64,000 nucleotides of DNA from the NCBI GenBank assembly GCA_018222765.1, contig JAAEZT010000011.1, positions 1 to 64,000 of the forward strand, in the 5' to 3' direction. Source of the DNA: a bacterium (GTDB taxonomy: Bacteria > Verrucomicrobiota > Verrucomicrobiia > Verrucomicrobiales > Akkermansiaceae). The notes beneath the pieces are model-generated. The model was not told where the DNA came from. It did no database searches and saw nothing but the letters and a program-made list of their open reading frames with translations. The first letter of the stretch is position 1, and the number at the start of each line of letters is the position of its first letter. Of the stretch, positions 14,557 to 64,000 are shown piece after piece. The position numbers and the translations under genes were made by a program.

Positions 14557-14595
14557 ATTCTTCCCAACTCCACAATCACTCTTCATTATTCCTCC

Positions 14596-44140: not shown

Positions 44141-47100
44141 CTATTCCAGATCGAGCGGATCAAAAGTCGGAATAGGAGCAGCCTCAGGTTTGTGAATCTT
44201 GAGCAGAACCTTCCCTGCCCTGGCCTGAAGAGCTTTCCAGCCATAATAGTTATCTTGCACCTTGCTGTGAGCCTCAGGGCCACCACGGAGATGGGACACT
44301 TCCATGTATTCGATGACATCACGAATGGCCTTGGCAGCGATCTTAGAATCCTTGGCAGAAAGATCCTCCATCCCCTCTGCATTGGAGATCAGACTTTCCG
44401 CAGCCTCTTTGACTCCCTTTTCCAAACAATACATCAATGTCCGTAGCGCACGCGCTTCATGCACGTTAGCCAGGAAACTAATGAGACGCTTATCGAGATG
44501 AATCTTAAGCAATGGTTCGGCAAAATCCAGACGTTCCGCATTGGTAATATCACCGAAGCCTTTAGGCCCCACGACCATGCGACGCACCGCTTGTTCTCCG
44601 ACCACTCTCGCCGTTTGCTTGTCCAGGCCAGCGAGTTTGAGCATCAGATTATCGGCAGCCCGACCTTGTGAGTAGGACAACGCAAAAATGATCTCCTCAA
44701 GCTCCGCCACGCTGTCGGTGCCGGCGGCTTTTTCCAGTGCCGCGATGCTCTCGGCATCACCGATCTGGGAGAGCAGGTAATAGAGCGATGGACGCACGAC
44801 ATCGCTCGCATCAGACATCATTCCGATCACAGCATCCCGCATGCGCGCCGCGTAAGCGTCGTCATCACGCCGGGATAAGAGCGCATCCTCACAGCCTCGA
44901 AGATCCTCCTGAGTCGTCGCCTGCTTCAGATGAGCGATGACTTCCGGCAAACCCTTTTCACCACCGAGCGCGAACACCGTCTTGACCGCCGCCTGACGAA
45001 TCACGGGCTCCTTGTGCTTCATTGCCTCTTTAGCCAGCGGTAGGGCCGAAGATGATTTCGCCCTAACAAACACTTCAAGAATTCCAGAGGCGTTTGCCGG
45101 ACCAGCGCTCTGTGAAAACTGCATCTCCAGTATTTTGGAACCCGCCACCTTAACAAGCTCCACTGCAATTTTCTGGCTGTGCTCGCGAAGTCTCCAATAG
45201 TCGTGACCGAGATATGGCAGTAGATCCTCCAAGGCATTTTCTCCAAGAAGTTCATTGAGGAAATCCATCGCCGCCATCTTGCGGAAATAGTTTTTCCGTG
45301 ACGGATCTTTGAGCTCGGCTCGACACAACTTGATCTTGGCGCCGGTGCCATCCAAAGCATCGATTTTCTCCTGAAACATCTTTTTCACATCGACGGCGAT
45401 GCTGGGCAAAGCTGGTGACTTTTTCGACGCCTTGATCAGATCGTAATACTTGATCAGATTGATGGAAATTTTCTTGTCCCCTTCCAGCTTCATCACCGTC
45501 TGCAAAGGATCGTCCGTAAGAACAACTCCGAGTTGATCGAAAAACTCATGAAAGGCGCCGGGTTGTTTTTCCACCGCCTCGGGGTCAATCAGGTTGCGCT
45601 TGTATCCGACGTGGGGGCGGATGTGCCGAGGAATGGCGGCCTTTTTCAGCAATCGATGGGCAGTGCTATGAACCCCCTCACGATATCCGAATTTTCCTAA
45701 CAAGGCCTGCGAGGGCTCGCAACGATTGGCAAACATTTGATCAACGATTTGCTCCTCCTCGGCAGCAAAGGTCAGCGGCCCGGCGATTTTCACAATGGTA
45801 TCCTTACCCCATGACTTGAGACGGGAAGCCGTGAAGGACTTGAAGGCCGGATCGAGGATAATAAGCTCCTCCAGAGCCTTTCGCACCAGTTCCTCGTCGA
45901 AGTCGGATTCAAAGGGAGTATTAGCGAGGACGTTATCTTTTCCAAAAAGAGCATACTGGGTTGAGTTCCTCACTCCGTTTGGTGAGAGCGTCTGGGGCTC
46001 TTCCAAAGTTGCCTTTAGCATGGCCAACTGGGTATCCTCGGCATCGGTGGCTTTCGAAATCACCCGCACTGCGGTGATCTGCACAAAGTCCTTCGGGTCA
46101 CTCAGCAGCGGAGTGACTTTCGACAAATTCTGCAACACCGCATCGCTTCCACAGGCCCCAAGAGTGCGGAGAGCACCATCGCGAAAGCGTGGTTCTTCAC
46201 TCTTCAACAAAGCAACTACTTTGGAGATAATTTCCTTCTCTCCGGCCTGGTAACGCTTGGCCAACTCACGGGCAAAAATCCCACGCACCTTGGGCTTGAA
46301 GATGTCGAGGAGGTCAATGAGCTCCTCGGTGCTGCGCTCCTGCCATGGAGTGCCGTCAATCTCCATGAGCCACGGATCGTTGAACTGAGCACGCGCGGTG
46401 GTCATCAACTGCTTCATCTCGCGTTCAGTCGGGTAGAGCGCTTCGTTGGGATCCTTTCCCGTAATCAGGGTCTGCTTAAGAGCGACAGCCTGATGAAGAA
46501 TCTCGGTTGCGGTTGGGTCACGCAAGGCCCCGTATTCCCAGGTCGGGGAATGGTAGACAAAACTGCCATCAAACATCCGGCAGAGTGTGCGGCGCCAGCG
46601 GAAGTTGCGCTCATTATAAATGCGAACCTGCGGCCCGCACATACCCGCAGCCCAAGACGACCAGTTGCCATGGTAATCATGACCATGTCCCCCGCGACGG
46701 GTAAACGCGCAGTGACTCGACATCATCGCAAAATACTTCGCGCCATAGTCATCGCCGAGTAGCTTCATCGAAAACGCCACTCCGGTATTCTTTCCGTTAC
46801 TATCATCGGTGGCGGCCGCTCCAAAGTCGCCGTAAGGAATGGCACCCTGATCGACATAGGAGCCAAAAAATTTGTGGGCACGCTCAATCGCCTGATCGAT
46901 CTCCGGATGTTCGACCCCAACATGCTTCGCCAGGGTGATCAGAAAAAAACAACGGTTACCGGCGGCATTCAGCGCACCATATCCGGGATTCATGCGGTGG
47001 AACTCACCGCCGTTAAACGAAGGAAAGGCGAAGGTATGCCCCCAGGAACCGCCACCACTCTGCCCCAAGGCCGTATCAATAGCATACTTCCGCAGAGCGG

Positions 47101-48094
47101 GTAGCACGAACTCATCTCCTGTCGCTTCGTAGTAGAGCGCACAATTAAGTCCTATGAATCCGTGGTGCCAACTTTGGTAACCTTTATAACCCCGATAGCC
47201 TGGCTCGAACATCGCCCCTGCAGGCACAGTCGGCGGATGCCATTGCTTGGCATGTGGACCACGCACCCATTCACGAACGATCTTTCGATGCTCCGGTTTA
47301 CCCGAGGCCACCAAGGCAATCGCCTCCAGCATTCCTCCGCGACCGCTGCGTGGCTTTTTTGGATCAACAACAAACCTCTTCTCCAGAACCTTCCAGGCTT
47401 CCTCAAGGATCTGATCCGTCTTCGGGCAGTCGTAGGGCGCAGTATCGCTGTAGTCGGGAAAGACCCTGAGCTTCAGTTCAACCTCGAAAGTCGTGGGCTC
47501 CACTGGGAATTCGTCAAAACCCTGTGCCTCCCTCTCGCGGGCCTCTTCTGGCTTCCATTCGTAGAGAGTATTGTCGTCACGGGCTTTATCGAAAAGGTTG
47601 TCAATATCGACACCCGCGATGTCTTTCTTGCCAAAACGTTTAATGTAATTTTTATCGCGCCAAACCTGAAAGCTGATCTTGCCGCCATTCACCTTCTTCT
47701 CGGCCTCGATAATAGCTTTGCCAATCAAATGCCCGAGATGCCCGCCCGTGACAAATTTCTTTCCGTTCAGACCAACGAGCACATCACCGGGGAGAAACAT
47801 CCCATCCGCCGGTGAGCCTTTAATCGTCGTCTTCACCTGAAACTGATCCCCGGAAAACCTTCCCGTCCACATTCCCACAATTCCGGTTGGACCCAGAGTC
47901 CAGGGCTTATCCGTCGTCTCCGGAGGCAGGTCACCTTTTGTTAAGTCCACGAGATTTTTGGGACGGCGAACATCCTGGGGCCCGAGATCCTCTCCCTTGG
48001 TAAGGGCCTCCATCTGCTCGGGAGTCAGGGTGCGCTCGTCTGCCGAAGCAAAGAATACGAACAAGAGCAAAGTAATCGAAATAAGTGTCTTCAT
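44141..48094 (-). CDS. DUF6288 protein with PDZ and HEAT-like repeats
   Basis: A 1317-aa exported protein with a signal peptide (M-K-T-L-I-S-I-T-L-L-L-F-V-F-F-A-S-A). A PDZ-like domain lies at about 70-160 (F-L-P-G-D-V-L-V-G-L-N-G-K). The next part (about 200-600) is the DUF6288 region, an alpha-toroid-like Gly/His/Trp-rich segment with W-H-H-G-F-I-G-L-N and G-G-G-S-W-G-H-T-F-A-F. The remaining 700 residues are helical HEAT-like repeats. It is the last gene of the large operon and overlaps the preceding gene by 4 bp (48091-48094). The toroid region could be an enzyme or a binding module; nothing decides this. The start at 48094 is fixed by the signal peptide. Confidence 0.8.
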   Translation of the reverse strand: MKTLISITLLLFVFFASADERTLTPEQMEALTKGEDLGPQDVRRPKNLVDLTKGDLPPETTDKPWTLGPTGIVGMWTGRFSGDQFQVKTTIKGSPADGMFLPGDVLVGLNGKKFVTGGHLGHLIGKAIIEAEKKVNGGKISFQVWRDKNYIKRFGKKDIAGVDIDNLFDKARDDNTLYEWKPEEAREREAQGFDEFPVEPTTFEVELKLRVFPDYSDTAPYDCPKTDQILEEAWKVLEKRFVVDPKKPRSGRGGMLEAIALVASGKPEHRKIVREWVRGPHAKQWHPPTVPAGAMFEPGYRGYKGYQSWHHGFIGLNCALYYEATGDEFVLPALRKYAIDTALGQSGGGSWGHTFAFPSFNGGEFHRMNPGYGALNAAGNRCFFLITLAKHVGVEHPEIDQAIERAHKFFGSYVDQGAIPYGDFGAAATDDSNGKNTGVAFSMKLLGDDYGAKYFAMMSSHCAFTRRGGHGHDYHGNWSSWAAGMCGPQVRIYNERNFRWRRTLCRMFDGSFVYHSPTWEYGALRDPTATEILHQAVALKQTLITGKDPNEALYPTEREMKQLMTTARAQFNDPWLMEIDGTPWQERSTEELIDLLDIFKPKVRGIFARELAKRYQAGEKEIISKVVALLKSEEPRFRDGALRTLGACGSDAVLQNLSKVTPLLSDPKDFVQITAVRVISKATDAEDTQLAMLKATLEEPQTLSPNGVRNSTQYALFGKDNVLANTPFESDFDEELVRKALEELIILDPAFKSFTASRLKSWGKDTIVKIAGPLTFAAEEEQIVDQMFANRCEPSQALLGKFGYREGVHSTAHRLLKKAAIPRHIRPHVGYKRNLIDPEAVEKQPGAFHEFFDQLGVVLTDDPLQTVMKLEGDKKISINLIKYYDLIKASKKSPALPSIAVDVKKMFQEKIDALDGTGAKIKLCRAELKDPSRKNYFRKMAAMDFLNELLGENALEDLLPYLGHDYWRLREHSQKIAVELVKVAGSKILEMQFSQSAGPANASGILEVFVRAKSSSALPLAKEAMKHKEPVIRQAAVKTVFALGGEKGLPEVIAHLKQATTQEDLRGCEDALLSRRDDDAYAARMRDAVIGMMSDASDVVRPSLYYLLSQIGDAESIAALEKAAGTDSVAELEEIIFALSYSQGRAADNLMLKLAGLDKQTARVVGEQAVRRMVVGPKGFGDITNAERLDFAEPLLKIHLDKRLISFLANVHEARALRTLMYCLEKGVKEAAESLISNAEGMEDLSAKDSKIAAKAIRDVIEYMEVSHLRGGPEAHSKVQDNYYGWKALQARAGKVLLKIHKPEAAPIPTFDPLDLE

Positions 48095-49290
48095 GAAGGG
48101 ATGAGTTCGGATTGATGAGAGGATGCTTTGGATACCTTCTCGCGGAGGATCAAAATTGAAAACCCGGTCGCCACCGCCAGCTTCAGCAAGTCTGCGCGGG
48201 TCTTTTGGGGCATAGGCGATTGAAGATCCCAAACAAGGTGGGCCGTTTGGGAAACCTTGGCCCGGGAGAGTTTTCGCTGCTCCAGCATTGCCTGAAAAAC
48301 GTTAAGAAACGTAAGCGCCCTTTCCGGGTCGGCAGAGACAAACGAACTGCGACCATACCAAACTGTTTCGAAAATGAACCCTTCATCAATTTCAGCGCTC
48401 GCGGTAATCAACTCTTCCTTCCCTCCAACGAAGGGCAGCCTTCTCATCGACTTGGGTAATTTCGCAGCCCGGGCGGAATCATCGGTCAGATAAATAAAGG
48501 AATCACCCCGCTTTACCAACCGGGCCAGCTCACCCCGGGCAGACTTTCGACACCGCTTCTTTGAGATCACCAAGGGAGCCATCGGCGTCAAGGCATTCAG
48601 CAAGGAACTAGGAAGAGGTAAAGGCCAGGAAGCCTTGCCATAGATATTGGCCCGTCGAAGGTAGTCGAAAAGAAAGACACCTACTCCAACCACCAAGAAG
48701 ATCAGCGTGAGCTTGAGATTCAGCAGATCCAATCGATTGGCCATGACGAGATCAGCCTCTGACATAATGATGGGTTCCTTACTCTCATCCGCATCAAACT
48801 CATCCGATTGTATTCCACCAATCACGCCTTCCCCTCCAATCTCCGACTCAAGACTGTCGTCTCCACCTCCTCCGCTGCGCGTCTTCTTTTCCTTCTTCCA
48901 CTCGGGTTCCCCCAGCCCTCCCTGACTCTCAAAGTATTTGAGATCGGCATCATCCATCCCGGCCCGATCCAGAAAATCATTGGCTCCATCTTCCGCAAAG
49001 CGAATCTGGGCAACCTCGTCCCCTCGATTGTCGAGAAGAGCCTGCTTCCTCGCCTCCTCTTGGGCCACCTGCTTTGCAAGCTCCTCGCTACGATCAGGCT
49101 GAATGCGATTCACATGAGTCTTCGAGTTCGTCCTCGCGCAGACAAAAGCAACGACCACACATCCCAGAGCCACCAAACTCGCGATCCGCAAGGGCTTCAC
49201 GATGTAGCAAATCCACAACAAGAGAGCTCCTCCGGTGAGAAGAACTCCGAAGTATCCAATCGAGCTAAAGTATTCCGGATTCCAATTCAT
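48091..49290 (-). CDS. Membrane protein of unknown function in the ExbBD operon
   Basis: A 399-aa protein with two N-terminal spans (about 10-60), a charged periplasmic stretch (E-E-L-A-K-Q-V-A-Q-E-E-A-R-K then acidic Gly-rich), a third span (about 205-225; L-T-L-I-F-L-V-V-G-V-G-V-F-L-F) and a C-terminal soluble domain of about 150 residues. I recognise no family. Start/stop overlaps of 4 bp link it to the DUF4159 gene upstream and the DUF6288 gene downstream, so it is probably made in step with them. It may be a scaffold for the ExbBD complex; that is inference. Confidence 0.7.
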   Translation of the reverse strand: MNWNPEYFSSIGYFGVLLTGGALLLWICYIVKPLRIASLVALGCVVVAFVCARTNSKTHVNRIQPDRSEELAKQVAQEEARKQALLDNRGDEVAQIRFAEDGANDFLDRAGMDDADLKYFESQGGLGEPEWKKEKKTRSGGGGDDSLESEIGGEGVIGGIQSDEFDADESKEPIIMSEADLVMANRLDLLNLKLTLIFLVVGVGVFLFDYLRRANIYGKASWPLPLPSSLLNALTPMAPLVISKKRCRKSARGELARLVKRGDSFIYLTDDSARAAKLPKSMRRLPFVGGKEELITASAEIDEGFIFETVWYGRSSFVSADPERALTFLNVFQAMLEQRKLSRAKVSQTAHLVWDLQSPMPQKTRADLLKLAVATGFSILILREKVSKASSHQSELIPS

Positions 49291-50903
49291 TTCTTGGCTT
49301 TCGTCACCGCGTCGTCCCAATGGTTGAAGGCATAGTAAACAAGGTTCACTCCCAGACTGGTCGCGGCCTCGCGCATCTCGGATGTGACATCGGTATATCC
49401 CTGGGACTTCCAGGCATCGTTCATATCACCCGGATGATAAAAGGCCATCCAGCGACCCTCATGCTTGATCCCCAGGGCCCGACGTCCGCCATGGTGCCAA
49501 AACGCAGGAGCACCTTCTGGAAAACGATAAGGAAGTTGGTAGATGATATCGTCGTCTGCGATATCCAGGAGTGGCTTATCCGGAAACACCTGCCTGATGA
49601 AGTGGATGAAGGAGCTATGGAAACGGGCACTTCCCGCATCAGCAATGAGCATCCCGCCACCCAAACAGTATTCGCGAAGAATTTTTATGTCCGCCGAGCT
49701 CACCCGCCCCATGCTGTTATTCCCAGTGAGGTAGACAAAGGGAGGAAACCCATCCTTGGGATATTTTTTCAGAAGCGCGATGGAATGACTCTCACCTTTC
49801 CGGGCAATCTTTTTGAAGCCAGTGGCCTGCGCAAATGAACGGAGGAAGTTCAAATCCGCACCGGTTTCATTCATCCCATCATCCCATCCGGCACCGCCAT
49901 GCTCCAGGCGGATAAAGCGCACCTTGTAATCCTCCATTCCCGCCGGCCATCCACCTTCGGTCCCTCCTCCCTTTCCGATCTTGCCAGCCTTGGCAATCGC
50001 CCCCGCTTCATAAGTTGCCTGGGTTTGTTTCTCCATCTCCCGATCCACCTCGGTTTCATCCAGATCGGGAATTGCCATGATGATGTCGGAATTGGCGCGC
50101 AGAGTGAGCGTTTTCTTTTTCTTCTTCTTTGGCTTCACCATTTTCACCATCGCGACGACCGGGTTGCCACTGCCTTTGGGAACCTTGTAGGGTTCAACAT
50201 TACCACCAAGGCTGAGCAACCACGGGATGATGATGAGAATCGTGATGTGGGTCCAGACACTGGCATAAAGACTCCGACGATGCCTTGGGTCCCGTCCATG
50301 CGTTCGCAAATCTTCGAGAACCCGATCTCCCGACATTGGCTCCCCCGCCTTCCGGGTAAAGGCTACATAAACAGAGCGACTGCGCAACATCACCCGCAGC
50401 CAAAAGGCATAGACGCCAATCGCCAAGGCAGGCCAGCACACCGACCACCATCTGAGTAGAATAGTCGCGCGATCCTGCTTCAAGGCATCGATTTCTACTC
50501 CCGCATTCAAAACCGCAAAGAGACCGAGCCAAGCGGTCACCACATATAAAAGAACTGCCGCATAAACGAGAAACAGCGAATTTCGCAAAAGTAGATACGT
50601 CAGCCTATTCTTCAGAACGGAAACCGTCCCCACGATTCCACTTACCAAGCCAACCAATCCAAAAGCCTGAAAAGAAAGGCCAAACGCTCTGGTGAAGCCA
50701 TGGGAATCAAACAGGTCCGAGACTCCGGGATTTTGCTCAAGGAATATCGCTAAAGCCGGCGGCCCCCAGGACCAAAAGGCCCAACCCAAGGAAGCAAGCA
50801 TCACCATTGCCACCCTCACCACCGTTGCCTTGAGCGGTGAAGGGCGGGTTGGGATCTCGCCGACCAATTCGGTCGGAAGAGAGCTTTTAGGTTGGGGATT
50901 CAT
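49287..50903 (-). CDS. DUF4159 protein with TonB-like membrane segment
   Basis: A 538-aa membrane protein. Four N-terminal spans (about 28-175) are followed by a fifth (about 211-231) that carries S215-V-W-T-H219, matching the S-x-x-x-H motif that in TonB couples to ExbB/ExbD. Next is a Lys-rich then Asp/Glu-rich linker (K-P-K-K-K-K-K-K; residues about 245-305). The C-terminal part (about 310-520) is DUF4159, with M-N-E-T-G-A-D-L-N-F-L, F-V-Y-L-T-G and G-G-G-M-L-I-A-D. DUF4159 is a glutamine-amidotransferase-like fold of unknown role. Its place between ExbD and DUF6288 genes makes it a likely energy transducer. It overlaps the next gene by 4 bp. Confidence 0.8.
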   Translation of the reverse strand: MNPQPKSSLPTELVGEIPTRPSPLKATVVRVAMVMLASLGWAFWSWGPPALAIFLEQNPGVSDLFDSHGFTRAFGLSFQAFGLVGLVSGIVGTVSVLKNRLTYLLLRNSLFLVYAAVLLYVVTAWLGLFAVLNAGVEIDALKQDRATILLRWWSVCWPALAIGVYAFWLRVMLRSRSVYVAFTRKAGEPMSGDRVLEDLRTHGRDPRHRRSLYASVWTHITILIIIPWLLSLGGNVEPYKVPKGSGNPVVAMVKMVKPKKKKKKTLTLRANSDIIMAIPDLDETEVDREMEKQTQATYEAGAIAKAGKIGKGGGTEGGWPAGMEDYKVRFIRLEHGGAGWDDGMNETGADLNFLRSFAQATGFKKIARKGESHSIALLKKYPKDGFPPFVYLTGNNSMGRVSSADIKILREYCLGGGMLIADAGSARFHSSFIHFIRQVFPDKPLLDIADDDIIYQLPYRFPEGAPAFWHHGGRRALGIKHEGRWMAFYHPGDMNDAWKSQGYTDVTSEMREAATSLGVNLVYYAFNHWDDAVTKAKK

Positions 50904-50930
50904 CGTGCCAAAAAAATGAAAAATCAGGAC

Positions 50931-51407
50931 CTACTTGAAGAGGTCTTCCTCTTCATCAACTTTAGGGATTTCGGGACCGTCCTTCTTAATCTTGAGATCT
51001 TTCTCAATGTCCGACTTGGGATCTGAAGTTTCTCCTTGTCGTGTTTCCCCTGGAGTTTTTGGCGTCTTAACCTCCGGAGCTTGCGCACCGCCGGAACTCT
51101 TCTTATCTGAAAAGTTGTTACTAATATCCTGCACGTTCAGGCCATGCTCCTCGGCAATATCACGCAATGAATCTGTCGCTTCCTTCATCGCCAACTCCAT
51201 CCTCTCTTGCTCACTCAACTCGGAGGTATCCTTGCCGGTGACAGCCTTCTTAAGGAAAGGAATGCTCGTCCCTAAAAGCAACACTGCATGAATCACCACC
51301 GTGAATAAAATAATCGTTTTTAAGCCTCGTCCTTTGAAGCTCTCCATCAATTCATCCGGTGAAATCTCGTCGCTACCCGACTTGTTTTTCGTTTCTTGTT
51401 CTTCCAT
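50931..51407 (-). CDS. TonB-like single-span protein lacking the TonB C-terminal domain
   Basis: A 158-aa protein. One membrane span (about 30-52) carries T36-V-V-I-H40, close to the TonB S-x-x-x-H motif. The remaining 105 residues are periplasmic, charged and probably disordered (rich in Lys, Asp, Glu and Pro, e.g. K-T-P-K-T-P-G-E-T). No TonB C-terminal Y-P-x-x-A-x-x-x-x-x-x-G-x-V domain is present. It lies between the second ExbD and the DUF4159 gene, with gaps of 13 and 27 nt. I infer an accessory transducer or a plug that works with the DUF4159 protein. Confidence 0.65.
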   Translation of the reverse strand: MEEQETKNKSGSDEISPDELMESFKGRGLKTIILFTVVIHAVLLLGTSIPFLKKAVTGKDTSELSEQERMELAMKEATDSLRDIAEEHGLNVQDISNNFSDKKSSGGAQAPEVKTPKTPGETRQGETSDPKSDIEKDLKIKKDGPEIPKVDEEEDLFK

Positions 51408-51420
51408 CTGATTTTTCTAA

Positions 51421-51846
51421 CTACTGATTGTTCTCTCCCACCGCCTCCAGGATCCCTCCTGCTTCGGCGATGGCTTTCATAACTGGTTCAAAAGTTTCCT
51501 TGGGTAAGGCCGCGTCGCACTTGAATTGAACATGACGTTGTTCATCCGACACCGTACTGGCCAAAACAGCCCGAACTCCCCACTCAACATCTTTGGAGCT
51601 GTCCACCCGGGCCCCGTCGAAGTAGATCACGCCCTCCGCATCGATTGCCACGCGGGCTGCGACCGAAGCTTTCGTTTTCTCAACGTATTCCGAATTCGGA
51701 AGCGTCACCTGAAGGTTAGTCTTATCCTTGGCCACCTCGCTGCACACCAAGAAGAAGATAATCAGCAAAAAGGCAATATCGCCCATGCTGGCTATCGGCA
51801 CTGGAATCGTGCGTCTTTTCTTCTTTCGCTGTGCTCGCTTGTTCAT
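51421..51846 (-). CDS. ExbD/TolR-family biopolymer transport protein (second copy)
   Basis: A 141-aa single-span protein. A basic N-terminus is followed by a span with the essential proton-carrying aspartate D23 (S-M-G-D-I-A-F-L-L-I-I-F-F-L-V). The periplasmic domain of about 95 residues matches ExbD/TolR. ExbD with ExbB uses the proton motive force to power TonB-like partners. It differs from the first ExbD mainly in the periplasmic domain. The gaps are 3 nt to the first ExbD and 13 nt to the TonB-like gene. Confidence 0.92.
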   Translation of the reverse strand: MNKRAQRKKKRRTIPVPIASMGDIAFLLIIFFLVCSEVAKDKTNLQVTLPNSEYVEKTKASVAARVAIDAEGVIYFDGARVDSSKDVEWGVRAVLASTVSDEQRHVQFKCDAALPKETFEPVMKAIAEAGGILEAVGENNQ

Positions 51847-51849
51847 CGC

Positions 51850-52263: not shown

Positions 52264-52284
52264 AAACCTGGCCGGTAATTCGAT

Positions 52285-52929: not shown

Positions 52930-52945
52930 AGTTTTATTACGGGTT

Positions 52946-53299: not shown

Positions 53300-53301
53300 A
53301 G

Positions 53302-56300: not shown

Positions 56301-59300
56301 GGAACCGGCGAATCGCTGCCGCAGGCTGATAGAAGAGAGCCCGATATCGGATTAGGCCCGAATACCCCGGATGACCGGTATTCACCATGGGTAGGGACTC
56401 CACCGACAAACCTCCGACTTTTGCGGAAAGAAATCTGCAAGATCCTTTGGCTGATCCCAGCTCCATCGCCTCGGCCCACTCGGAAGGCAACGCTCTTCCT
56501 TCCGGAGCTGGAATGGCAATACCACCACGGTAGGTGGGAAACGAACTCACCATGGGAGTTCCATCCCATTGCTCAACATCGGAATCTACGGGGTAACGAT
56601 ACCTCGTCGTCCAGCTCGTTCCATTCATCGAAGTCTGAAGCACAAAGTGAGTAAGAGCCCGGCCGCCTTCTCCTTCAGAGAGAGACATCTTGTCCAGAGA
56701 AACATTGTCATTCAAATCAACCCCGAAGATCCTAAGCTCTTCTTTGTCCCCCACTTTGCCCAGCCAGCCCGGATAGTTCTGCGAACTGATCGTCATGTTG
56801 GGATCGCGACCAGGCGCACTCTCAGAGGCAAAGGCCAGAGCCTGGGCTCCGCTGGTGGGAACGATGGCCTGAAACTCTCCGGTGAACGGCCCTGTCTCTC
56901 TGAGAGCAAGGCGTCGAATCTCATCACCACTGGACGCCACCAACGTCACAAAAACTTCATCGATTCCCGGAGTCTTACTCTGATCCGAGTCGGTCAAGCG
57001 TAGGTAAACCGGATTCCCCGGCCGAACCGACCTGGTTCCCAAAGCAGTCTGAGCCGTGGACAAACCGAGTTCTTCAATGGCGAGAAGCCGCTCACCCTCA
57101 CGTGGAGGAAAAGCACCTGCGGTCAGATCGAGACTGGCATCAGAAGCCACGCTGATCACCACGGTAGGATCATCTGGCAGATCATCCATCTTGGCACGGA
57201 AGCGCTTTGAATATCCAAAGCGAATTTCGTCTTCACCCAGGATTTGGAGCGTCTTGTCACCCGGAACCGGCGGCCCCAATGAGGTGGGAACTTCGGCCCG
57301 GAATTTCTCCTTATTGTCTCCAAGCTGATAAAGCATGACCCGCTCCCGATCTCCGGACTTGGCCCAAATTTCCACTTCAATATCCGCACCCACTCCTGAA
57401 ACCCGCAGCGTCGGGTCACGAAGATTAATCTTCACGGCCTCTCCTGGCACAATGACCGTGTTCTCTTGCGAGGGTCCAAGTTCAATTTCACTCGCCTCTA
57501 CCAGCTTGCGCATCTCGTTGTGAATCTTGCCTCGAAGGATCAAGGCATCAGGATGTTTGGAATCGCGAAGCAGGACCGCTTCAATTTCATCCAATCCCTC
57601 TTTGTAGTTTTCCTGATCCATGAAGACCTCGGCCCGGGCATAACGAACCTTGTTTCGGAAAGAGACATTTTTGATCCGTAACAATTTATCGAGCTCCGTC
57701 ATCGCTGCGCCAAAGTTCTTGGATGCCCGGTCAACTTTCACCGAACCCAAAGCCGCTCTCAGCCCCATCTCAGAACCTTGATATTCCTCGGCGTCGGCGA
57801 CACGTCGGTAGTAGGCACGGGAGGTCGGAAGCGCACCTTTCAGAAAGGCAAGATCAGCATAAGCAATCTTAAGCTCCGCCTCTTGTTCCAGACTGAATGT
57901 TCCCTCGGCCTGGCGCGACCAAATCGTCAACTCTTTGACAAGAGCCTCCCCCTCGTCAGTGCGGTTCATACGGGTATTTCGACTCAGCAACCAAAATCCG
58001 TAATCAACCGAAAGCTCGCGCAGGATTGGCTGGAGTTGATCTGCGTTCTTGAGATAGAGATCCCAGGCGGAGTCGAGGTTTCCTTGCACGAACTCGGCGT
58101 TCGACTTGTAAATTGGATAAGCTGGATCGGTCTCATCGACCGGAATTTCGACCGCTCCAATCGCCAAAGCCGCCGGACCGCTCACACCATTGACTCGGGC
58201 CGCAATTTTCGGAATCTCCGAGTCCTGCTTCTTAAACAGTATCCGACCAACCGGACCACGGAGGGCGGCTCGACAAAAGGATGAAGCTACCGAAGGAGAA
58301 TTTCCTTTGAGCATGGCCTCGGAAAGAGTCGACAGAACCGCCGCACCTTGTGACCTCGGATGATCCGGACTCGCAGCCGCCTGCCACAAGCCGGCAGCGT
58401 ATGGTTCAAGCGGCTCCCATTTCTTACTCTCCGTTGCGTCATTCGCGATCCGGACAACAAGTGGCTCATAACCCTGTCGGTCTGGATAGTTGCCAATCGG
58501 TGCGTTTTCTTTGAACAAGGAAAGCACCAGGCTCCGGGTCGCTGTGGACCACTCAGGCAGGGCGGCGACCTGACTCAGACCGACGACCGTGGTCGTAGCT
58601 GGCGCCTTGGACGCACGCTCCACTGCGGCCTTGAATGCCGCTTCCACCTGAGCGGGAGTGGCCTCTTTCGGTAAGGCGAGCAACTCGCGGCTAAGGTGTC
58701 GCGAGTCGGCAGCCGCCAGGGCTGGCGTCATCGCGATCTCTCCAAAATGGTGTTGATCCGCCGCTGCCCGATGGTAGGCCGGGTCGAGCTTCGCGTAGGC
58801 GGGCGACTTTGCGATCACCTTCATCAAGTCCCGCATCTTCTCATCGCGGACATCGATGCTGTGCAGCCACATCCCAAAGACCGTTTCGGAAAAAATGCCA
58901 GCTTTGGCTTGAGCTTCCACCGTCCGGGTCAAATGCGTGAGCAATTCCGCGCCACTTTCCCGCGTTTCCTTCTGATGGTAGCGGAAGTGATTGTCATAGA
59001 CTTCTGCCTGCCAAAAAATAGAGCCACTCTTTCCAAATCGACAGTTTGGTAAAATTCGGCGGAGCAGGAAATCCCGCCCACCTTGCAGATTAACAGTCAT
59101 GGATTTGAGCATCGTGACCTTGTCCGGATCGGGCGCATTAGTGAAGAGCTCACTCCAGAGTGGCAACGAACCAACAATGCGCGGAGAAGCGCCGAGGAGA
59201 TCCCCCTGCAGAACTTTGAAAGCAGCGAGGCGATCTTTGCTCGAGGCTTCTTTACTGGTCTGCTTTTTCAACTTTTGAAATAGGGTATCAAGTTTCTCAT

Positions 59301-60657
59301 ACTTCTTGATCGGCACATCGTGCTCAACATCACGCTCGAACATGCCGCTGTGCCAGAGACCATGTGTAAGCGCCTTAACTTCGGTAAAGCGCCACATCTC
59401 CGACTTCATCATGTCATCAGTGACCGCACTGTATTTGCGTTCCGGCTTGGCCCATGCCCGCACCATAGCCGCCTGGGCATGCGGGTTACGGGCGAGATGC
59501 GGAGCAATCGCCTTTGCCATTTCAGGCGTCAAAGTCTTATCAAATAACGGAACATCCGGAGCGGATAAATCATTGAAAACTGCCGGAATTTTGGTCACCA
59601 ATATTCGCAACTCTTCTTTACTAAAGAGATACTCAGCGAGTTTACGATTTTTGGAATCCGGAAACTGCTGACTTAGCACATCACGCGCCTTTTCGGCCGA
59701 TAAACCAGCCAGAGCCCGCAGCACTGGAGCAGCCTTCTCCTCACGCCGCGGATTGACGAAGGTTGCAAACACCCCCGAATCACCAGCTCTAAAAAACATC
59801 CATCCCTTGGCAACTGCTATCGAGCCTTCATAAGGAAGAATCCGCACAAGTGAATCAGCTGCTCTCAAAGCGGGATCCATGAGTTCATCGGCGATCTTTT
59901 CTTTGGCTCCCACCTTTTCGGCCATCACCGCAGCCAGCGGCACAATCACCTTAACCCAAGCAATCCGGGCCCTGTCCTGGGCGGTCGTTCTTTTGGCAGC
60001 AGCGAGACGATCGAGAGCCGCAAACAAAGTCTCCCCGCTATGGCGAAAGGTTTCCAATTCACGAATCAACTTCGCGCGAGTATTCGTAAATGGTTCCAGC
60101 GAATCATTGCTATTATAAATGGCGGCCAAACGATTCGCGATAGCAGCTAGGTCAGATCGATCTTCCGCCTGAGCGAGAAACCAAGCGTCAAACTGCTTCG
60201 TGCGACCGAATCCCCGCAAGCGGTCACCATCTTCCTTCATGAAAAGATAGGCCGCTTCGCTGTCGCCAAGATAATTAACCAGAAGTCGATAAACCGCCGG
60301 CGCCGCCTCTCCAGCCAAACGCCCGTCGACCTGCGGGTTCTTTAAAAGCTTTCGGTAGAAACTGACAGCCGATGACCAATCCCCCGCCCGCTCGGCAGAT
60401 TGGCCGGCATGGAAAAGCAGTTGTTGAGAGGACGACGGATGCGCAGCCAACCACGATTTCACCGCCGCGAAAGCTCGTGCCGAACGATGTTCCTTAATTC
60501 CAGATTGCAGGATTTGGGAGACCGCACCCTCAGTCTGAGTGGTGGCGTTTTTGAAGCCCGCAATTTGATCATCCAGAGGTGAGGCTGAAAGGCCCATCGA
60601 CCCCATGAACAATACCCCAAGGGCTACCATGCGTGACCTAAGAGAAGATCGACTCAT
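53302..60657 (-). CDS. Giant envelope protein with ET-x-x-S-G-x-F beta repeats and C-terminal TPR domain
   Basis: A 2451-aa exported protein. The start at 60657 is supported by GGAG 8 nt upstream and an adjacent signal peptide (M-S-R-S-S-L-R-S-R-M-V-A-L-G-V-L-F, cleavage near G-L-S-A-S). A longer start at 60708 overlaps the upstream stop (ATGA) and cannot be excluded. Residues about 30-1100 are alpha-helical and solenoid-like. Residues about 1100-2100 are beta-rich and contain at least three motifs of the form E-T-x-x-x-[ST]-G-x-F near 1250, 1720 and 2052. Residues about 2130-2451 are TPR repeats of the BamD/YbgF kind (V-K-L-A-Y-K-Y-P-D-D-E). The C-terminal two fifths are paralogous to the gene upstream. 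The protein probably spans much of the periplasm; role unknown. Confidence 0.8.
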   Translation of the reverse strand: MSRSSLRSRMVALGVLFMGSMGLSASPLDDQIAGFKNATTQTEGAVSQILQSGIKEHRSARAFAAVKSWLAAHPSSSQQLLFHAGQSAERAGDWSSAVSFYRKLLKNPQVDGRLAGEAAPAVYRLLVNYLGDSEAAYLFMKEDGDRLRGFGRTKQFDAWFLAQAEDRSDLAAIANRLAAIYNSNDSLEPFTNTRAKLIRELETFRHSGETLFAALDRLAAAKRTTAQDRARIAWVKVIVPLAAVMAEKVGAKEKIADELMDPALRAADSLVRILPYEGSIAVAKGWMFFRAGDSGVFATFVNPRREEKAAPVLRALAGLSAEKARDVLSQQFPDSKNRKLAEYLFSKEELRILVTKIPAVFNDLSAPDVPLFDKTLTPEMAKAIAPHLARNPHAQAAMVRAWAKPERKYSAVTDDMMKSEMWRFTEVKALTHGLWHSGMFERDVEHDVPIKKYEKLDTLFQKLKKQTSKEASSKDRLAAFKVLQGDLLGASPRIVGSLPLWSELFTNAPDPDKVTMLKSMTVNLQGGRDFLLRRILPNCRFGKSGSIFWQAEVYDNHFRYHQKETRESGAELLTHLTRTVEAQAKAGIFSETVFGMWLHSIDVRDEKMRDLMKVIAKSPAYAKLDPAYHRAAADQHHFGEIAMTPALAAADSRHLSRELLALPKEATPAQVEAAFKAAVERASKAPATTTVVGLSQVAALPEWSTATRSLVLSLFKENAPIGNYPDRQGYEPLVVRIANDATESKKWEPLEPYAAGLWQAAASPDHPRSQGAAVLSTLSEAMLKGNSPSVASSFCRAALRGPVGRILFKKQDSEIPKIAARVNGVSGPAALAIGAVEIPVDETDPAYPIYKSNAEFVQGNLDSAWDLYLKNADQLQPILRELSVDYGFWLLSRNTRMNRTDEGEALVKELTIWSRQAEGTFSLEQEAELKIAYADLAFLKGALPTSRAYYRRVADAEEYQGSEMGLRAALGSVKVDRASKNFGAAMTELDKLLRIKNVSFRNKVRYARAEVFMDQENYKEGLDEIEAVLLRDSKHPDALILRGKIHNEMRKLVEASEIELGPSQENTVIVPGEAVKINLRDPTLRVSGVGADIEVEIWAKSGDRERVMLYQLGDNKEKFRAEVPTSLGPPVPGDKTLQILGEDEIRFGYSKRFRAKMDDLPDDPTVVISVASDASLDLTAGAFPPREGERLLAIEELGLSTAQTALGTRSVRPGNPVYLRLTDSDQSKTPGIDEVFVTLVASSGDEIRRLALRETGPFTGEFQAIVPTSGAQALAFASESAPGRDPNMTISSQNYPGWLGKVGDKEELRIFGVDLNDNVSLDKMSLSEGEGGRALTHFVLQTSMNGTSWTTRYRYPVDSDVEQWDGTPMVSSFPTYRGGIAIPAPEGRALPSEWAEAMELGSAKGSCRFLSAKVGGLSVESLPMVNTGHPGYSGLIRYRALFYQPAAAIRRFQLSGYPAKDEKGNVNTIFLIDGEPADEDAEDPMTIERELAPGLHEIQIWRHEGRNELLKRKPVLLCDEAGKDELVACPDSMFDPESFPEAVQKLIPQPAEVSKSDKGYDFSFGNQTQARLVRLVIAGFEGVAPGIGKLTLSDREGAALLPVRQDFKSLRENTELEVLPGDQITARYEDPVTATPRRTRHEKRLTVAYNNAEVTASFLNYETTEEGRVLVLEPIRRFRFDDAVAIVIDDPDMDASPERDVIEFKVTTQSGGKATIKALETEDHSGRFLGRVFPVEGDPGRASEIQMSKGGSLTATYRDEENLDPGIPTDRSVTISHAAYQAPSISAYTIASKTLEVPVVEESNAVKTSGKRLAPEIVLPRRRLDYSHVGNADSAKEPLQGVVGASLRFDVVVPHLALAGSSEIRAYVQTEAGRESAEGALKSPFDVGVPGTMKLTGVLKGVELVEPSGYEVGESPRPPSNEPPLEEGRFSFSVPLVLGDQPTRSFANKAAESLPRSSIPEGLIVKSGDIVHLGYPYKDVDDSVKWKTTTFRVGSHGFLDVMDGNYNSALTSSFVGEKIYVRVLDRGLDTGPARDITKVTLTSSSGAETAYELNETEPHSGVFKGVFALSYADEKLPSELPPVALNGFPVRYGDDVTISYRTDDGEQSSQVNVNKGADGLVEPFSKRFTGDSMAVQTSFTLAECFFELAKKHREMEQESLARREMSQAQKLLAEAVATHRDDELRAHAEYLLGNLAQEYADLSKNDEAKLPMYQDALSRFSKIPADYPDTEFASKAQFKTALVYEKMGEIDNAVEEYVKLAYKYPDDELIPEVMSRLGGYFQKKGIALKKQGDPLREKEDAESKAEVLRLDDLSYPEFLNAAMVFGKLEERFPDDKLAGLAGLRAAQNYMRALQYEKAIAGFEKVYGNEKYDDRSVRSQAMYWCGLSYERSVEPEMMEAYQLYRRITFDFPDSKWAKYARGRLADPAFARIIEIEKQERERLIEALKESRK

Positions 60658-60704
60658 TCGTTTATCTCCGAAGTCGTTGAATTGATGAATATCTCTGTCT
60701 TTCT

Positions 60705-63700
60705 TCATTCCTGCTCCAATCGCTCAAGCTCCAGTTCACTTTCCAACCTCAACAAACTTCCTTGTGAAAGTTCACCCCGTGCATATGCCGCCCATTCGCT
60801 CTCCGGGAAATCATAAGTCAGGCGCTTATAGATCGAGTAAGCAGCCATTTGTTCGTTTTGATCCTGATAACACTTGCCCGACCAATACATCGCCTGCGAC
60901 CTAATCGTCTTCCCATCGTAACCTTCCTCATTGATCACCATCGAGAAAGCGCCGATTGCCTCAGGCAACTTATCAGCCCGCATATAGGCCTGTCCCGCCC
61001 GAAGTCCGGCAGCACCAGCCATCGCATGATCGGGAAAACGCTCCTGCATTCGGGAAAAGATCTGGGCCGTCTTAAGATACTCACGGGACGCCATTTTCTT
61101 CAGAGCCTCTCCTTTGAATGAGGCATCCTTGTCATCCTCCTGCTCAAGAAGAGGCTTGGACTCGGCCTCATACTGCGCAGCCTTCTTTAGGAAATGACTC
61201 CCCAGCCTCGCCATCGAAGTGGCGAGATATTCGGAATCGGGATACTTGTAGGCGAGCTTCACATATTCCTGTGCGGCGATTTCAGGCTCCTTCAATTTTT
61301 CATAAATCGTCGCGATCCTGAACTGCGCCCTTGAGGCATGCAAGGTCTCGGGATAACTCCCGGTCACGGTCATGAACCGTGACAGGGCCGCTCGATATCG
61401 ATCTTCCTTCAATTCCCCGGCCTCGGTGGTGTCAGCCTCTTCCAGGGTGAGATTCCCCAGAAGATATTCAGCATGAGCACGGGTATCCGGGTCACGGAAA
61501 TCCTCCATCGCATTGGCCAATAATTGCTTTGCCTGTTCATACTCGCGTGCCGCCAACTCGGTTTCGCCCAAGCGACGATGACGCTTTGCAATTTCGAGGT
61601 AGGCTTCCGCCAACGAAAACTGGGTACGCATCGCAACTTCGGGATCTTCATACTGTTTGGAAAAAGGCTGAATGGTTCCATCCGCTCCCTTGCTGATTGA
61701 AACCGTAGCAATCGGCGTCTTCACACCATTCGAATCAGTGTAACGGGCCGCCACCATATCTCCGTAGGCCACAGGCAGGCCTTGCCGCGCCATATTGTAA
61801 TCTTCGGGCAGACTCCCTGGAGTCTTGTCGTAGCTCAGAAGATAGCCGCCTGTAAAAACTCCGCTGTGTGGGGCGGTCTCACGCAGATCAATCCTCCCCT
61901 TTGCTCCGGACTTCGCCTGCAATAACACCGAGACGAGGTCGCTTCCGTCGGTCAAATCAGCCCCCAAATCACGCACCTGAAGATGAAGGGTTTCCCCAGC
62001 ATAAGCGGTGGTGACTCTTTCCTCAAAATCCTCGTCCAACACCTCAAAAATCGGATGAGTGGTCACTTTTGCGGAAGCGGTCATCCATTTCTTGTTCCCT
62101 TCGCGATCCTGATACTGAGCACCAAAATAGACCTTTTCCCCGGGCTTCACGACCAGTCCGCCACCAAGCTGTTCAAGGATGCGAGCGGCACTGCGTGAGG
62201 TCTCGATCTGCTTACGCAATTCGCTTCGCTCATCATCACTGAGAACGCCCCGCGCCGGAAGAACATCTGCCACAAGCGGCACCGAGAATCGAAAACGGTC
62301 ATCCGCTTCCGAATTCGAAACACTCCATTCGACTCCTCCACCCCGATAGTTGCGGCTCCGCCAATCCTGCAGCTCGCGCCACTGGTTGCCGGTCCATCTT
62401 GACGAAAGAACACCATTTAAGGAAACTGTTCCCGGCACCTGAATATCGAATTCATCATTAGGCCCCTTACCGGCAGCCCTCCGGCCCGCTTCGCTTTGGG
62501 CATACATTGTCACAGTCGAGGAACTCCTCATGGCCAACTGGGAAGCGCAAAGTTCAAGATACGCCATTTGTCCATGGATGAGCGATATCCCTTCATCAGA
62601 CACCGTCTCCGATGAGGTCAAAACACTCTTAACCAACCAATAGTTTCGGCCTCTTTTGAGCGATTCATCGCGTGCCATAAATTCGGCCTTCGAATTTCCT
62701 ACCAAGAGTTCCGGTGTCTGGAACCCGGCATGGACTACTTTTCCCTGACGTTCGATTGGAACTCCCGGCCGGTTGTTTTCTGCATCCAGGTAGACCGCAA
62801 GCAATCGCCCACCTTCTGCGACCTGAATCTGGTCATCACCTGAAGCATTTCCCTCCACAGGAACAATGGTCGCCTGAAAGACTCCCGTAGACGGTCCGGT
62901 CTCGGTAGCAACCAGTTTCTTTGTCCCACCGGTTTCGCTTTGAACACTCACCTGGACGGTATCGGCTTCCACCGTGGAATCCATGTCGGCATCTTGAACA
63001 GCAATACTCAATGGCTCATCGTAGGAGAAGCGAAGTAGCTTCTCATAAAAAGGCCGCTCTTCACCATGACGCCCACTCCAACGCGGCTCCATGTCAGCAA
63101 ACTCAACCCGCGCATCGGTAAATGCGACATCTAGAAAACGCTCCTGCTTTTCCTTACTCTCGGTCACGAACCGATCATCGACGTAGCGCACGGAAATTTT
63201 ATCGCTCGTTAAAATCTCCAGAACCTCATTCTTCCCCAGTTGGGCAAAGTCCTCCGCCACCGGCAATATCTTTTCACCTTCGGGCCCGTTGAGAGCAATA
63301 CGATTAACAACGGGCACCGGACCTTCTTGTTCCAGGAACACCAATCTCAGCAAACGAGCCCGTGATCCCGGAGCAAAACTGACCTTAAATTCTTTTCCAT
63401 CTTCATCGGAAACAATTTTTGCTGGTGAGTTGCGATGGTTGAGGACACCGGATGGAAAGGACTCAGGATTAAAAAACTGATCGGGGCAATCAACAAGCCC
63501 TTCGGAGTCATCGAGATTGGCCAACAATTTGACATTACGACCAAAGCCGATGGTGCAATCCCATCCCGTGGCCCAAATCTCAAGACGATGCAGACCGGCT
63601 CGCAAGTTGATCTGACCTTCCAATCGATCCAGTGCCTCTTGGTTAGTAATGGGGCGCCCATCGACGGCCAGAAGAAACTGGGGCGGATGAGCAACCGAGG

Positions 63701-64000
63701 GGTGCGTCTTCTCGGGCACCTGAAACTGACCAAGATTCAATTTGAATCGACGGATCACATTGGTGGGTTCATAAAAATAAGCGCGGAACCGATAGATTAC
63801 ATGGGAGTTGTGATGCCTGCCTTGGCGCAGCCACTTTACCTTCCCGGGGATCTCTGCTGACATCGCCTCCGAGGGACCCGCGACGTTTCCGGTCGCCACA
63901 GCCTGAAATTGCTGAGTAATCCAGCCGAACTCCATGTGCTCGGTCAACTCATTGAGATCGTAGACCGAGCGATCATTGCGAGTGTGATGATGGTCGGTGT
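60705..64000 (-). CDS. Paralogous giant beta-repeat/TPR envelope protein, 5' end beyond the window
   Basis: The reading frame is open to the window edge with no start needed inside, so the N-terminus lies to the right; at least 1098 residues are seen. A possible TTG start at 63947 is not used, since coding sequence continues upstream (D-R-S-V-Y-D-L-N-E). The visible part has a PA14-like or similar beta module (A-G-L-H-R-L-E-I-W), two E-T-x-x-[HS]-[ST]-G-V-F repeats (near nt 62890 and 61870) and a C-terminal TPR region with V-K-L-A-Y-K-Y-P-D-S-E. It parallels the last 1100 residues of the next gene in order and motif, so the two arose by duplication. Its stop overlaps the possible upstream start of that gene by 4 bp. 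Confidence 0.8.
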   Translation of the reverse strand, partial: TDHHHTRNDRSVYDLNELTEHMEFGWITQQFQAVATGNVAGPSEAMSAEIPGKVKWLRQGRHHNSHVIYRFRAYFYEPTNVIRRFKLNLGQFQVPEKTHPSVAHPPQFLLAVDGRPITNQEALDRLEGQINLRAGLHRLEIWATGWDCTIGFGRNVKLLANLDDSEGLVDCPDQFFNPESFPSGVLNHRNSPAKIVSDEDGKEFKVSFAPGSRARLLRLVFLEQEGPVPVVNRIALNGPEGEKILPVAEDFAQLGKNEVLEILTSDKISVRYVDDRFVTESKEKQERFLDVAFTDARVEFADMEPRWSGRHGEERPFYEKLLRFSYDEPLSIAVQDADMDSTVEADTVQVSVQSETGGTKKLVATETGPSTGVFQATIVPVEGNASGDDQIQVAEGGRLLAVYLDAENNRPGVPIERQGKVVHAGFQTPELLVGNSKAEFMARDESLKRGRNYWLVKSVLTSSETVSDEGISLIHGQMAYLELCASQLAMRSSSTVTMYAQSEAGRRAAGKGPNDEFDIQVPGTVSLNGVLSSRWTGNQWRELQDWRSRNYRGGGVEWSVSNSEADDRFRFSVPLVADVLPARGVLSDDERSELRKQIETSRSAARILEQLGGGLVVKPGEKVYFGAQYQDREGNKKWMTASAKVTTHPIFEVLDEDFEERVTTAYAGETLHLQVRDLGADLTDGSDLVSVLLQAKSGAKGRIDLRETAPHSGVFTGGYLLSYDKTPGSLPEDYNMARQGLPVAYGDMVAARYTDSNGVKTPIATVSISKGADGTIQPFSKQYEDPEVAMRTQFSLAEAYLEIAKRHRRLGETELAAREYEQAKQLLANAMEDFRDPDTRAHAEYLLGNLTLEEADTTEAGELKEDRYRAALSRFMTVTGSYPETLHASRAQFRIATIYEKLKEPEIAAQEYVKLAYKYPDSEYLATSMARLGSHFLKKAAQYEAESKPLLEQEDDKDASFKGEALKKMASREYLKTAQIFSRMQERFPDHAMAGAAGLRAGQAYMRADKLPEAIGAFSMVINEEGYDGKTIRSQAMYWSGKCYQDQNEQMAAYSIYKRLTYDFPESEWAAYARGELSQGSLLRLESELELERLEQE

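What the first reader, a model, noticed from the sequence alone, without database searches (positions are those of the whole stretch)
44141..64000. Candidate undescribed PMF-driven envelope machine: giant TPR proteins with ExbB, two ExbDs, DUF4159 and DUF6288
Nine or more genes on one strand are joined by gaps of 2-27 nt or 4-bp overlaps over about 20 kb. They combine a proton-powered stator (ExbB, two ExbD, both with D23) with two very large periplasmic proteins, two TonB-like proteins without a TonB end, and a DUF6288/HEAT protein. Known ExbBD systems power TonB, TolA or flagellar-like partners; here no TonB receptor, TolA, TolB or Pal is encoded. Stators and their mechanical partners are normally encoded together, so the giants and DUF4159 are likely the driven parts. 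The cargo (polysaccharide uptake, envelope remodelling, adhesion or gliding) is open.
Basis: partly seen in the sequence, partly recalled or inferred. Interest (0 to 1): 0.85.

Follow-up and report, generated by a model that had tools for sequence, protein, structure and literature searches.

The report
Proton-powered envelope machine with giant proteins
A verrucomicrobial genome carries a long gene cluster that joins a proton-driven membrane motor to very large, probably sugar-binding periplasmic proteins, and the same arrangement recurs in many related bacteria, so it is probably a real but uncharacterised machine that pulls on or holds material across the cell envelope.

Summary

The core recurs elsewhere. 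Among 79 named loci with a relative of the DUF4159 protein, ExbB lies upstream in 61 of 64 with enough flank, two ExbDs in 62 of 65, a giant in 43 of 49. A diverged second cluster with the same core lies in this genome and its relatives.

p158 and the DUF4159 protein carry an S-x3-H membrane motif like that of TonB and TolA, but no TonB end. The giants are a TPR array, a rod of beta-sandwiches with a CBM32-like domain, and a CpoB-like TPR end.

Best reading: a dedicated Tol-like, proton-powered machine acting on glycans at the outer membrane; coupling and cargo are inferred. The second cluster lacks the S-x3-H motif. Non-TonB motor-driven transducers in these phyla are already in print (vWA type, PMC12204202), so I rate this a new variant of a known kind.

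The parts
60705..64000 (-). giant 1, C-terminal part (full protein 2567 aa, continues outside the window to contig C33:68408): N-terminal TPR, beta-sandwich rod, C-terminal YbgF/CpoB-like TPR
   Evidence: ORF and Pfam TPR_6/YfiO; NCBIfam tol_pal_ybgF 75.9 bits, below its cut-off of 90.1
53302..60708 (-). giant 2 (2468 aa): signal-peptide-like N-terminus, TPR to about 1075, beta-sandwich rod about 1080-2150 with a CBM32/F5-8C-like domain, CpoB-like TPR at the C-terminus
52946..53299 (-). p117, small protein without a Pfam match
   Evidence: found in relatives of the window type
52285..52929 (-). ExbB/TolQ-type motor subunit (214 aa)
   Evidence: PF01618 E 5.6e-26; tolQ model 106.2 bits against exbB model 78.5, both below cut-off; T136 and T171 in 56 of 56 sequences
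51850..52263 (-). ExbD/TolR-type subunit 1 (137 aa)
   Evidence: PF02472 E 5.1e-19; D23 in 48 of 48 sequences
51421..51846 (-). ExbD/TolR-type subunit 2 (141 aa)
   Evidence: PF02472 E 1.3e-16; D23 in 34 of 34 sequences
50931..51407 (-). p158: one membrane helix with T-x3-H, then a charged periplasmic tail, no TonB/TolA C-terminal domain
49287..50903 (-). DUF4159 protein (538 aa): N-terminal membrane helices, the last (around residue 219) with S-x3-H, lysine-rich linker, C-terminal DUF4159 domain
   Evidence: PF13709 E 6.1e-30; S-x3-H column counts; model and fold match to 4i66
48091..49320 (-). p409: membrane protein without a Pfam match, three hydrophobic stretches
   Evidence: present in 50 of 71 loci with 1 kb or more downstream
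44141..48232 (-). DUF6288 plus HEAT-repeat protein, accessory of the window type
   Evidence: PF19805 E 7.8e-82; 26 of 53 loci with enough flank

Best explanation
The cluster encodes a dedicated Tol-like machine powered by the proton gradient. Shown from sequence: an ExbB/TolQ-type channel and two different ExbD/TolR-type subunits with intact proton-path residues; a single-helix protein (p158) and a multi-helix protein (DUF4159) which in the window type both carry the S-x3-H membrane motif that TonB and TolA use to sit on the motor (that role is recalled and in PMC12204202), but which end in a disordered tail or in a DUF4159 domain instead of a TonB domain; and exported TPR proteins and giants whose ends resemble CpoB, the TPR partner of Tol-Pal. 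Inferred: proton flow moves p158 and the DUF4159 protein, which pull or turn the CpoB-like ends of the giants; the giants are envelope-spanning rods that hold glycans through their CBM32-like domain; the work done is the handling of polysaccharide at the outer membrane (capture, import or retention) and not iron or vitamin uptake through a TonB receptor.
For: Linkage: ExbB upstream of the DUF4159 gene in 61 of 64, two ExbDs in 62 of 65, a giant in 43 of 49 loci with enough flank, of 79 loci examined. Second cluster type with order TPR2, giant, ExbB, ExbD, ExbD, p160, DUF4159, TPR complete in 12 loci. Further classes of the phylum: full-length DUF4159-protein matches (E below 1e-100) in 14 of 288 genomes, own genome included; a giant beside it in 12 of 16 regions fetched there, own-genome control regions not counted. 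Motor residues invariant: D23 48 of 48 and 34 of 34, T136 and T171 56 of 56. The cluster ExbBs form one clade (support 0.92) apart from four other ExbBs of this genome and one more. S-x3-H: 42 of 50 aligned DUF4159 proteins; [ST]-x3-H in 35 of 43 p158 relatives against 9 of 358 membrane-like stretches of other ORFs. No TonB_C or TonB-receptor gene in the cluster (matches up to E 0.01), while the genome has three TonB_C and five Plug matches on other contigs. CpoB-like TPR: profile of giants matches CpoB 6g5s E 2.2e-10; TPR2 passes the tol_pal_ybgF cut-off, 98.4 against 90.1, as do two of two second-type giants tested. Glycan link: giant 2 model matches CBM32 4lpl at Z 14.1, 126 residues, 2.7 A; F5/8C Pfam matches in 9 of 11 giants up to E 0.5, best 3.8e-6; DUF1501 and PSD1/PSCyt genes beside the second type, each in 13 of 14 loci with flank; in the genus, giants go with sulfatase density 26-40 per Mb against 6-18 and one 37, 12 against 7 genomes at 85% completeness or more, p 0.005.
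Against: No biochemistry. The second type lacks the membrane histidine in p160 (0 of 6) and DUF4159 (0 of 7), and 7 of 50 window-type relatives lack it in DUF4159, so coupling by this motif is not universal. Three loci (L158, L180, L186) and region L201 have the motor and DUF4159 but no giant found, and one second-type giant (G043, L083) has no motor genes in the 2.7 kb left of its contig. F5/8C in giant 2 itself is only 15.9 bits, cut-off 28.2, and the giant of L189 gave no F5/8C match. The fold of a CBM32-like domain does not prove sugar binding. PDB sequences do not decide between ExbB and TolQ (52.8 against 51.3 bits). No outer-membrane component was identified.
Confidence: 0.6

Rival explanations
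1. A Tol-Pal-like machine for outer-membrane stability: the giants tie the outer membrane to the cell wall and the motor tensions them during division. Glycan binding would then be peptidoglycan or lipopolysaccharide binding.
For: CpoB-like TPR ends, tolQ model scores above exbB, TolB_N absent from this genome and from 58 of 58 relatives.
Against: Most small genomes of the same genus lack the giants: at 85% completeness or more, 7 of 19 genomes, two of them 2.6 Mb at 92-96% completeness, and those also lack TolB_N, so it is not a general stand-in. No OmpA/Pal domain appeared among the 10 window proteins (E up to 0.01).
Confidence: 0.17
2. A surface-adhesion or gliding machine like AglRQS-Glt of Myxococcus xanthus, with the giants as the moved track or adhesin.
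For: One TolQ-type plus two TolR-type subunits and several TPR proteins, one of 4132 aa, as in the Agl-Glt clusters (PMC3169522, passages and Table 1); S-layer-like beta-sandwich rod.
Against: No Glt sequence was available for a direct comparison; no outer-membrane barrel, FHA or TonB_C domain among the window proteins. Gliding in the carriers was not looked up.
Confidence: 0.12
3. The motor serves a second, ordinary Ton-type job and the giants are a structural (S-layer-like) operon that travels with it.
For: Anammox and archaeal S-layer proteins are among the closest sequence and fold matches of the rod; p158 and DUF4159 of the second type lack the motif; one giant without motor genes in its contig remnant.
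Against: Linkage in 43 of 49 named loci and in 12 complete second-type loci; two of the three TonB_C genes have an ExbB of their own within 3 kb.
Confidence: 0.08

Closest known systems
vWA force transducers of PVC bacteria (PMC12204202, section 8 read whole)
   Same: [quoted passage not shown] membrane helix with the TonB/TolA-type histidine motif; no TonB end; function unknown.
   Different: Theirs has one N-terminal helix (His35) and a vWA end. Here the transducer candidates are a tail-only p158 and a DUF4159 protein with several helices whose end matches 4i66. Giants, DUF4159 and DUF6288 are not mentioned in the passages I saw; 'DUF' occurs 0 times in its main text. Its supplements were not seen, so overlap of some clusters cannot be excluded.
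Tol-Pal
   Same: TolQ/TolR-type motor, single-helix protein with the motif, CpoB/YbgF-like TPR proteins.
   Different: No TolB_N in the genome, no TolA/TonB C-terminal domain in the cluster, two different TolR-type subunits, giants.
Ton system
   Same: ExbB/ExbD motor and the S-x3-H helix.
   Different: No TonB_C domain and no TonB receptor in the cluster; these lie on other contigs.
AglRQS-Glt gliding machine of Myxococcus (PMC3169522, passages)
   Same: One TolQ-type and two TolR-type subunits, several TPR proteins including a 4132-aa one.
   Different: There the genes are spread over three clusters and include outer-membrane proteins and a TonB_C/FHA protein; no DUF4159 listed in its Table 1 as seen.
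Hoch_4089 (PDB 4i66), solved DUF4159-like protein
   Same: Fold of the DUF4159 domain (Foldseek E 2.9e-9, TM 0.80 on the target).
   Different: About 200 residues, no membrane part in the solved chain; function not given in the hit.

Membership tests
Tol-Pal system | TolQ and TolR-type motor subunits | tested here: met
   PF01618 and PF02472; tolQ model best of the NCBIfam hits but below cut-off
Tol-Pal system | TolA or TonB C-terminal domain on the transducer | tested here: not met
   no such Pfam match at E up to 0.01 in p158 or the DUF4159 protein
Tol-Pal system | TolB | tested here: not met
   TolB_N 0 of 1 own genome and 0 of 58 relatives; controls E. coli, Caulobacter and Bacteroides ring
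Tol-Pal system | Pal lipoprotein | tested here: inconclusive
   no OmpA domain in the 10 window proteins; the genome was not searched for Pal
Tol-Pal system | CpoB/YbgF TPR protein | tested here: met
   TPR2 98.4 bits, cut-off 90.1; giants 1 and 2 and TPR1 below the cut-off
Ton system | TonB_C protein and TonB receptor with the motor | tested here: not met
   none in the cluster; three TonB_C and five Plug matches on other contigs
vWA force transducers (PMC12204202) | TPR gene, TolQ-type gene and two TolR-type genes upstream | tested here: met
vWA force transducers (PMC12204202) | membrane helix with the S-x3-H (SHLS) motif | tested here: met
   S and H: window type 42 of 50 in DUF4159 and 35 of 43 in p158; the L and last S of SHLS were not tested; second type 0 of 7 and 0 of 6
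vWA force transducers (PMC12204202) | single N-terminal helix, linker, then globular end | tested here: not met
   DUF4159 protein has several N-terminal helices; p158 has one helix but no globular domain found
vWA force transducers (PMC12204202) | vWA fold of the end domain | tested here: inconclusive
   Pfam gives DUF4159 and no vWA; best fold match 4i66, no vWA in the 50 rows shown of 434
AglRQS-Glt machine | one TolQ-type and two TolR-type subunits | tested here: met
   definition from PMC3169522
AglRQS-Glt machine | homologues of the Glt proteins | not tested
   no Glt sequence was fetched
Glutamine-amidotransferase/ThuA-like enzymes | catalytic cysteine | tested here: not met
   no invariant cysteine in 18 aligned DUF4159 proteins; fold relation itself weak: ThuA 1t0b E 0.41

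The most novel reading that the evidence does not exclude
A previously undescribed kind of proton-driven glycan-hauling machine of PVC bacteria: the motor drives a DUF4159-type transducer and a tail-only TolA-like partner, which ratchet periplasm-spanning giants with CBM32-like sugar-binding and CpoB-like ends, so that large (perhaps sulfated) polysaccharides are drawn through or held in the envelope without a TonB receptor. This could contribute to how these bacteria take up intact polysaccharide.
Probability: 0.25. Interest if true: 0.9.

Novelty: new variant of a known kind. Interest (0 to 1): 0.7.

Why it matters
If true, it adds a further branch to the small set of ExbBD/TolQR-driven machines: one with giant sugar-binding rods as the load and a DUF4159 domain in place of a TonB end. 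It would give a first role to DUF4159 and make the question of how Verrucomicrobiota and relatives handle large sulfated polysaccharides testable with a defined set of genes. Rubritalea profundi, a named strain in the collection (L115), carries the cluster, though its giant 2 is read as two ORFs there.

Tried and rejected
DUF6288 as a core part: rejected, 26 of 53 loci with flank, and the family has many copies elsewhere (10 matches in the own genome).

The DUF4159 protein as a vWA transducer: tested by Pfam and fold search; the best and only match below E 0.001 is 4i66. vWA is not among the 50 rows shown, which does not exclude it.

DUF4159 as an active amidotransferase: no invariant cysteine.

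Canonical Tol-Pal stand-in: TolB_N missing in 58 of 58 relatives, also in those without the giants, so the cluster does not track its absence.

PA14-like part of the giant: seen by eye only; no Pfam PA14 match as shown (25 of 39 families listed), so it is not claimed.

Internal repeats of giant 2: a self-comparison by blastp found only the full-length self match.

Sulfatase link: first-look counts, not scored matches; density p 0.014 (15 against 12 genomes, all), 0.005 (12 against 7, at least 85% complete), 0.11 (10 against 4, at least 90%); G004, G023 and G025 are giant-negative but rich; G004 has a weak giant match (E 5e-4) and G023 is 61% complete.

By window-based motif search, 45 of 76 DUF4159 proteins have [ST]-x3-H and 54 of 76 [STA]-x3-H; the aligned-column count (50 rows chosen from 63 with full length) is higher because some helices fall under the window threshold. 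The p158 set of 43 includes weak hits down to 19 bits, two of them in long ORFs that may be wrong frames (L152, L156). All 43 have [STA]-x3-H, but the control was counted for [ST] only and with a stricter hydrophobicity threshold (1.6 against 1.3).

Papers: 8 searches were sent, 7 ran. No paper held DUF6288 or DUF4159. No paper held four of Kiritimatiell, Lentisphaer, ExbD, biopolymer transport protein, Akkermansiaceae, TPR. Nothing on this cluster was seen in the listings; preprints and most subscription journals are not held. PMC12204202: section 8 read whole and passages; PMC3169522, PMC6851124 and PMC5615132: passages only.

Organism names of loci L111-L189 are the submitters' titles (mostly MAGs, some plainly odd), so the spread to Planctomycetota is not proven; one search gives no kinship for them. 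Spread to other classes of the same phylum rests.
Full report
What is there. The window lies on contig C33 of a 4.33 Mb draft genome. Fetching the contig beyond the window shows that the co-directional run starts earlier: TPR1 (591 aa), TPR2 (774 aa), giant 1 (2567 aa), giant 2 (2468 aa), p117, ExbB, ExbD, ExbD, p158, DUF4159, p409, DUF6288, in all 12 genes from C33 position 72526 down to 44141.

A second cluster. The DUF4159 search of the own genome gave two places. The second, at the end of contig C43, reads ExbB, ExbD, ExbD, p160, DUF4159, TPR; its giant (2336 aa or more) and TPR2 sit at the end of contig C64. That these two contig ends join is inferred from relatives, where the order TPR2, giant, ExbB, ExbD, ExbD, p160, DUF4159, TPR is complete in 12 loci (L072-L080, L082, L084, L085). 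Giants of both types align over their length, at 21-34% identity between types or paralogues. In the second type a DUF1501 gene and a PSD1/PSCyt gene lie upstream, each in 13 of 14 loci with flank, both in 12 (Pfam for L088).

Spread. In 58 relatives (own genome included) giant 2 has matches at E up to 1e-10 in 20, from five families of the order. A scan of named genome contigs with the DUF4159 alignment found 244 relatives, of which 79 distinct loci were kept. Among those with enough flank, ExbB is upstream in 61 of 64, two ExbDs in 62 of 65, a giant in 43 of 49, p158 in 50 of 71, p409 in 50 of 71 and DUF6288 in 26 of 53. The three loci without a motor (L149, L150, L176) have short DUF4159 ORFs of 283-365 aa. 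Six loci lack a giant: these three and L158, L180, L186. In the phylum sample, 14 of 288 genomes (own included) have a full-length match below E 1e-100, the other 13 from ten families outside the class; of 16 regions fetched from them, 12 show a giant, three are cut by contig ends, and one (L201) has about 11 kb upstream without a giant.

The motor. D23 of both ExbDs is invariant (48 of 48, 34 of 34) and T136 and T171 of ExbB are invariant in 56 of 56; that these match the proton-path residues of E. coli ExbD/ExbB is recalled. NCBIfam favours tolQ over exbB (106.2 against 78.5 bits, both below cut-off), while solved structures do not decide (52.8 against 51.3). In a small tree the cluster ExbBs of both types form a clade of 23 with support 0.92, apart from five others, four of them from this genome. 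The genome has 10 MotA/ExbB matches, three TonB_C, of which two have an ExbB within 3 kb, five TonB-receptor plugs and no TolB_N.

Transducer candidates. In the window type p158 is a single-helix protein with T-x3-H. Among 43 relatives, down to 19 bits, 35 have [ST]-x3-H in the helix and all have [STA]-x3-H; among 358 membrane-like stretches of 400 other ORFs, 9 have [ST]-x3-H. The last membrane helix of the DUF4159 protein has S-x3-H in 42 of 50 aligned sequences and H in 43; the 7 without H come from one kind of relative in which p158, where found, keeps it. In the second type neither protein has it (0 of 6 and 0 of 7). The motif's role in TonB and TolA is stated in PMC12204202 (section 8). 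The DUF4159 domain model (mean pLDDT 79.4) matches 4i66 (E 2.9e-9), as does the sequence profile (E 4.6e-10).

The giants. Pfam and NCBIfam see TPRs at both ends. The giant profile matches CpoB (6g5s, E 2.2e-10), YbgF (2xev, 4.5e-8) and an archaeal cell-surface protein (8c8k, 3.3e-8). The model of residues 1080-2170 of giant 2 (mean pLDDT 83.7) is a row of beta-sandwiches; its best fold matches are the Nitrosopumilus S-layer protein (Foldseek E 1.3e-21; Z 16.6, 4.9 A over 220 residues) and CBM32/F5-8C domains (4lpl Z 14.1, 2.7 A over 126 residues). F5/8C is seen by Pfam in 9 of 11 giants at E up to 0.5, weakly in giant 2 itself. Sec-type N-termini without a lipobox are read by eye; no signal-peptide program was run.

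Function. Three weak lines point to glycans: the CBM32-like domain, the DUF1501/PSD1 neighbours of the second type (PSCyt genes lie near sulfatase genes in freshwater Verrucomicrobia, PMC5615132, passages), and the higher sulfatase density of giant-positive genomes within the genus (loose counts, one clear exception, not significant at the strictest completeness cut). The absence of giants from several small genomes of the genus argues against a housekeeping role.

Comparison. Tol-Pal, Ton, AglRQS-Glt and the vWA transducers each share some features; for Tol-Pal, Ton and the vWA type at least one defining feature was tested and not met, and Glt homology was not tested (membership table). The general idea of unexplored PMF-driven transducers beside a TPR gene, a TolQ and two TolRs in PVC bacteria is in print (PMC12204202). 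The combination with DUF4159 and giants was not seen in the papers and listings viewed.

Verdict. A real, conserved and probably dedicated machine; new variant of a known kind; cargo open, polysaccharide handling most likely.

Noticed in passing
L169:11445-18757: Directly downstream of the DUF4159 gene lies another motor run: a 1091-aa TPR protein, an ExbB (278 aa) and a 497-aa protein with an N-terminal S-x3-H helix and a weak squalene-cyclase-like (toroid) match, below cut-off. Possibly another motor-driven transducer with a different end.
   Followed up: partly
L088:9583-13324 and the other second-type loci: DUF1501 and PSD1/PSCyt1/PSCyt2 genes sit upstream of TPR2 and the giant of the second cluster type, each in 13 of 14 loci with flank.
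   Followed up: partly
L115:1-7571 (Rubritalea profundi): Giant 2 is read as two ORFs of 1631 and 877 aa, and the same genome has further DUF4159 pieces with in-frame stops (G336), as if copies were decaying. Sequencing error not excluded.
   Followed up: no
L101:3084-4673 and L102:8247-10034: ORFs of 529 and 595 aa with two DUF4159 matches in tandem (G003:C51 and G054:C84).
   Followed up: no
window 30252-33930: Two neighbouring ORFs whose first residues look like the PSCyt and DUF1501 pair; judged by eye, not scanned.
   Followed up: no
L217 (G000:C21) 13144-16751: Another run with a 776-aa TPR protein, an ExbD and an ExbB (258 aa) away from the TonB genes; what it drives is unknown.
   Followed up: partly
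G043 and G024: DUF6288 is strongly multiplied in some relatives (27 and 25 matches per genome against 10 in the own genome).
   Followed up: no
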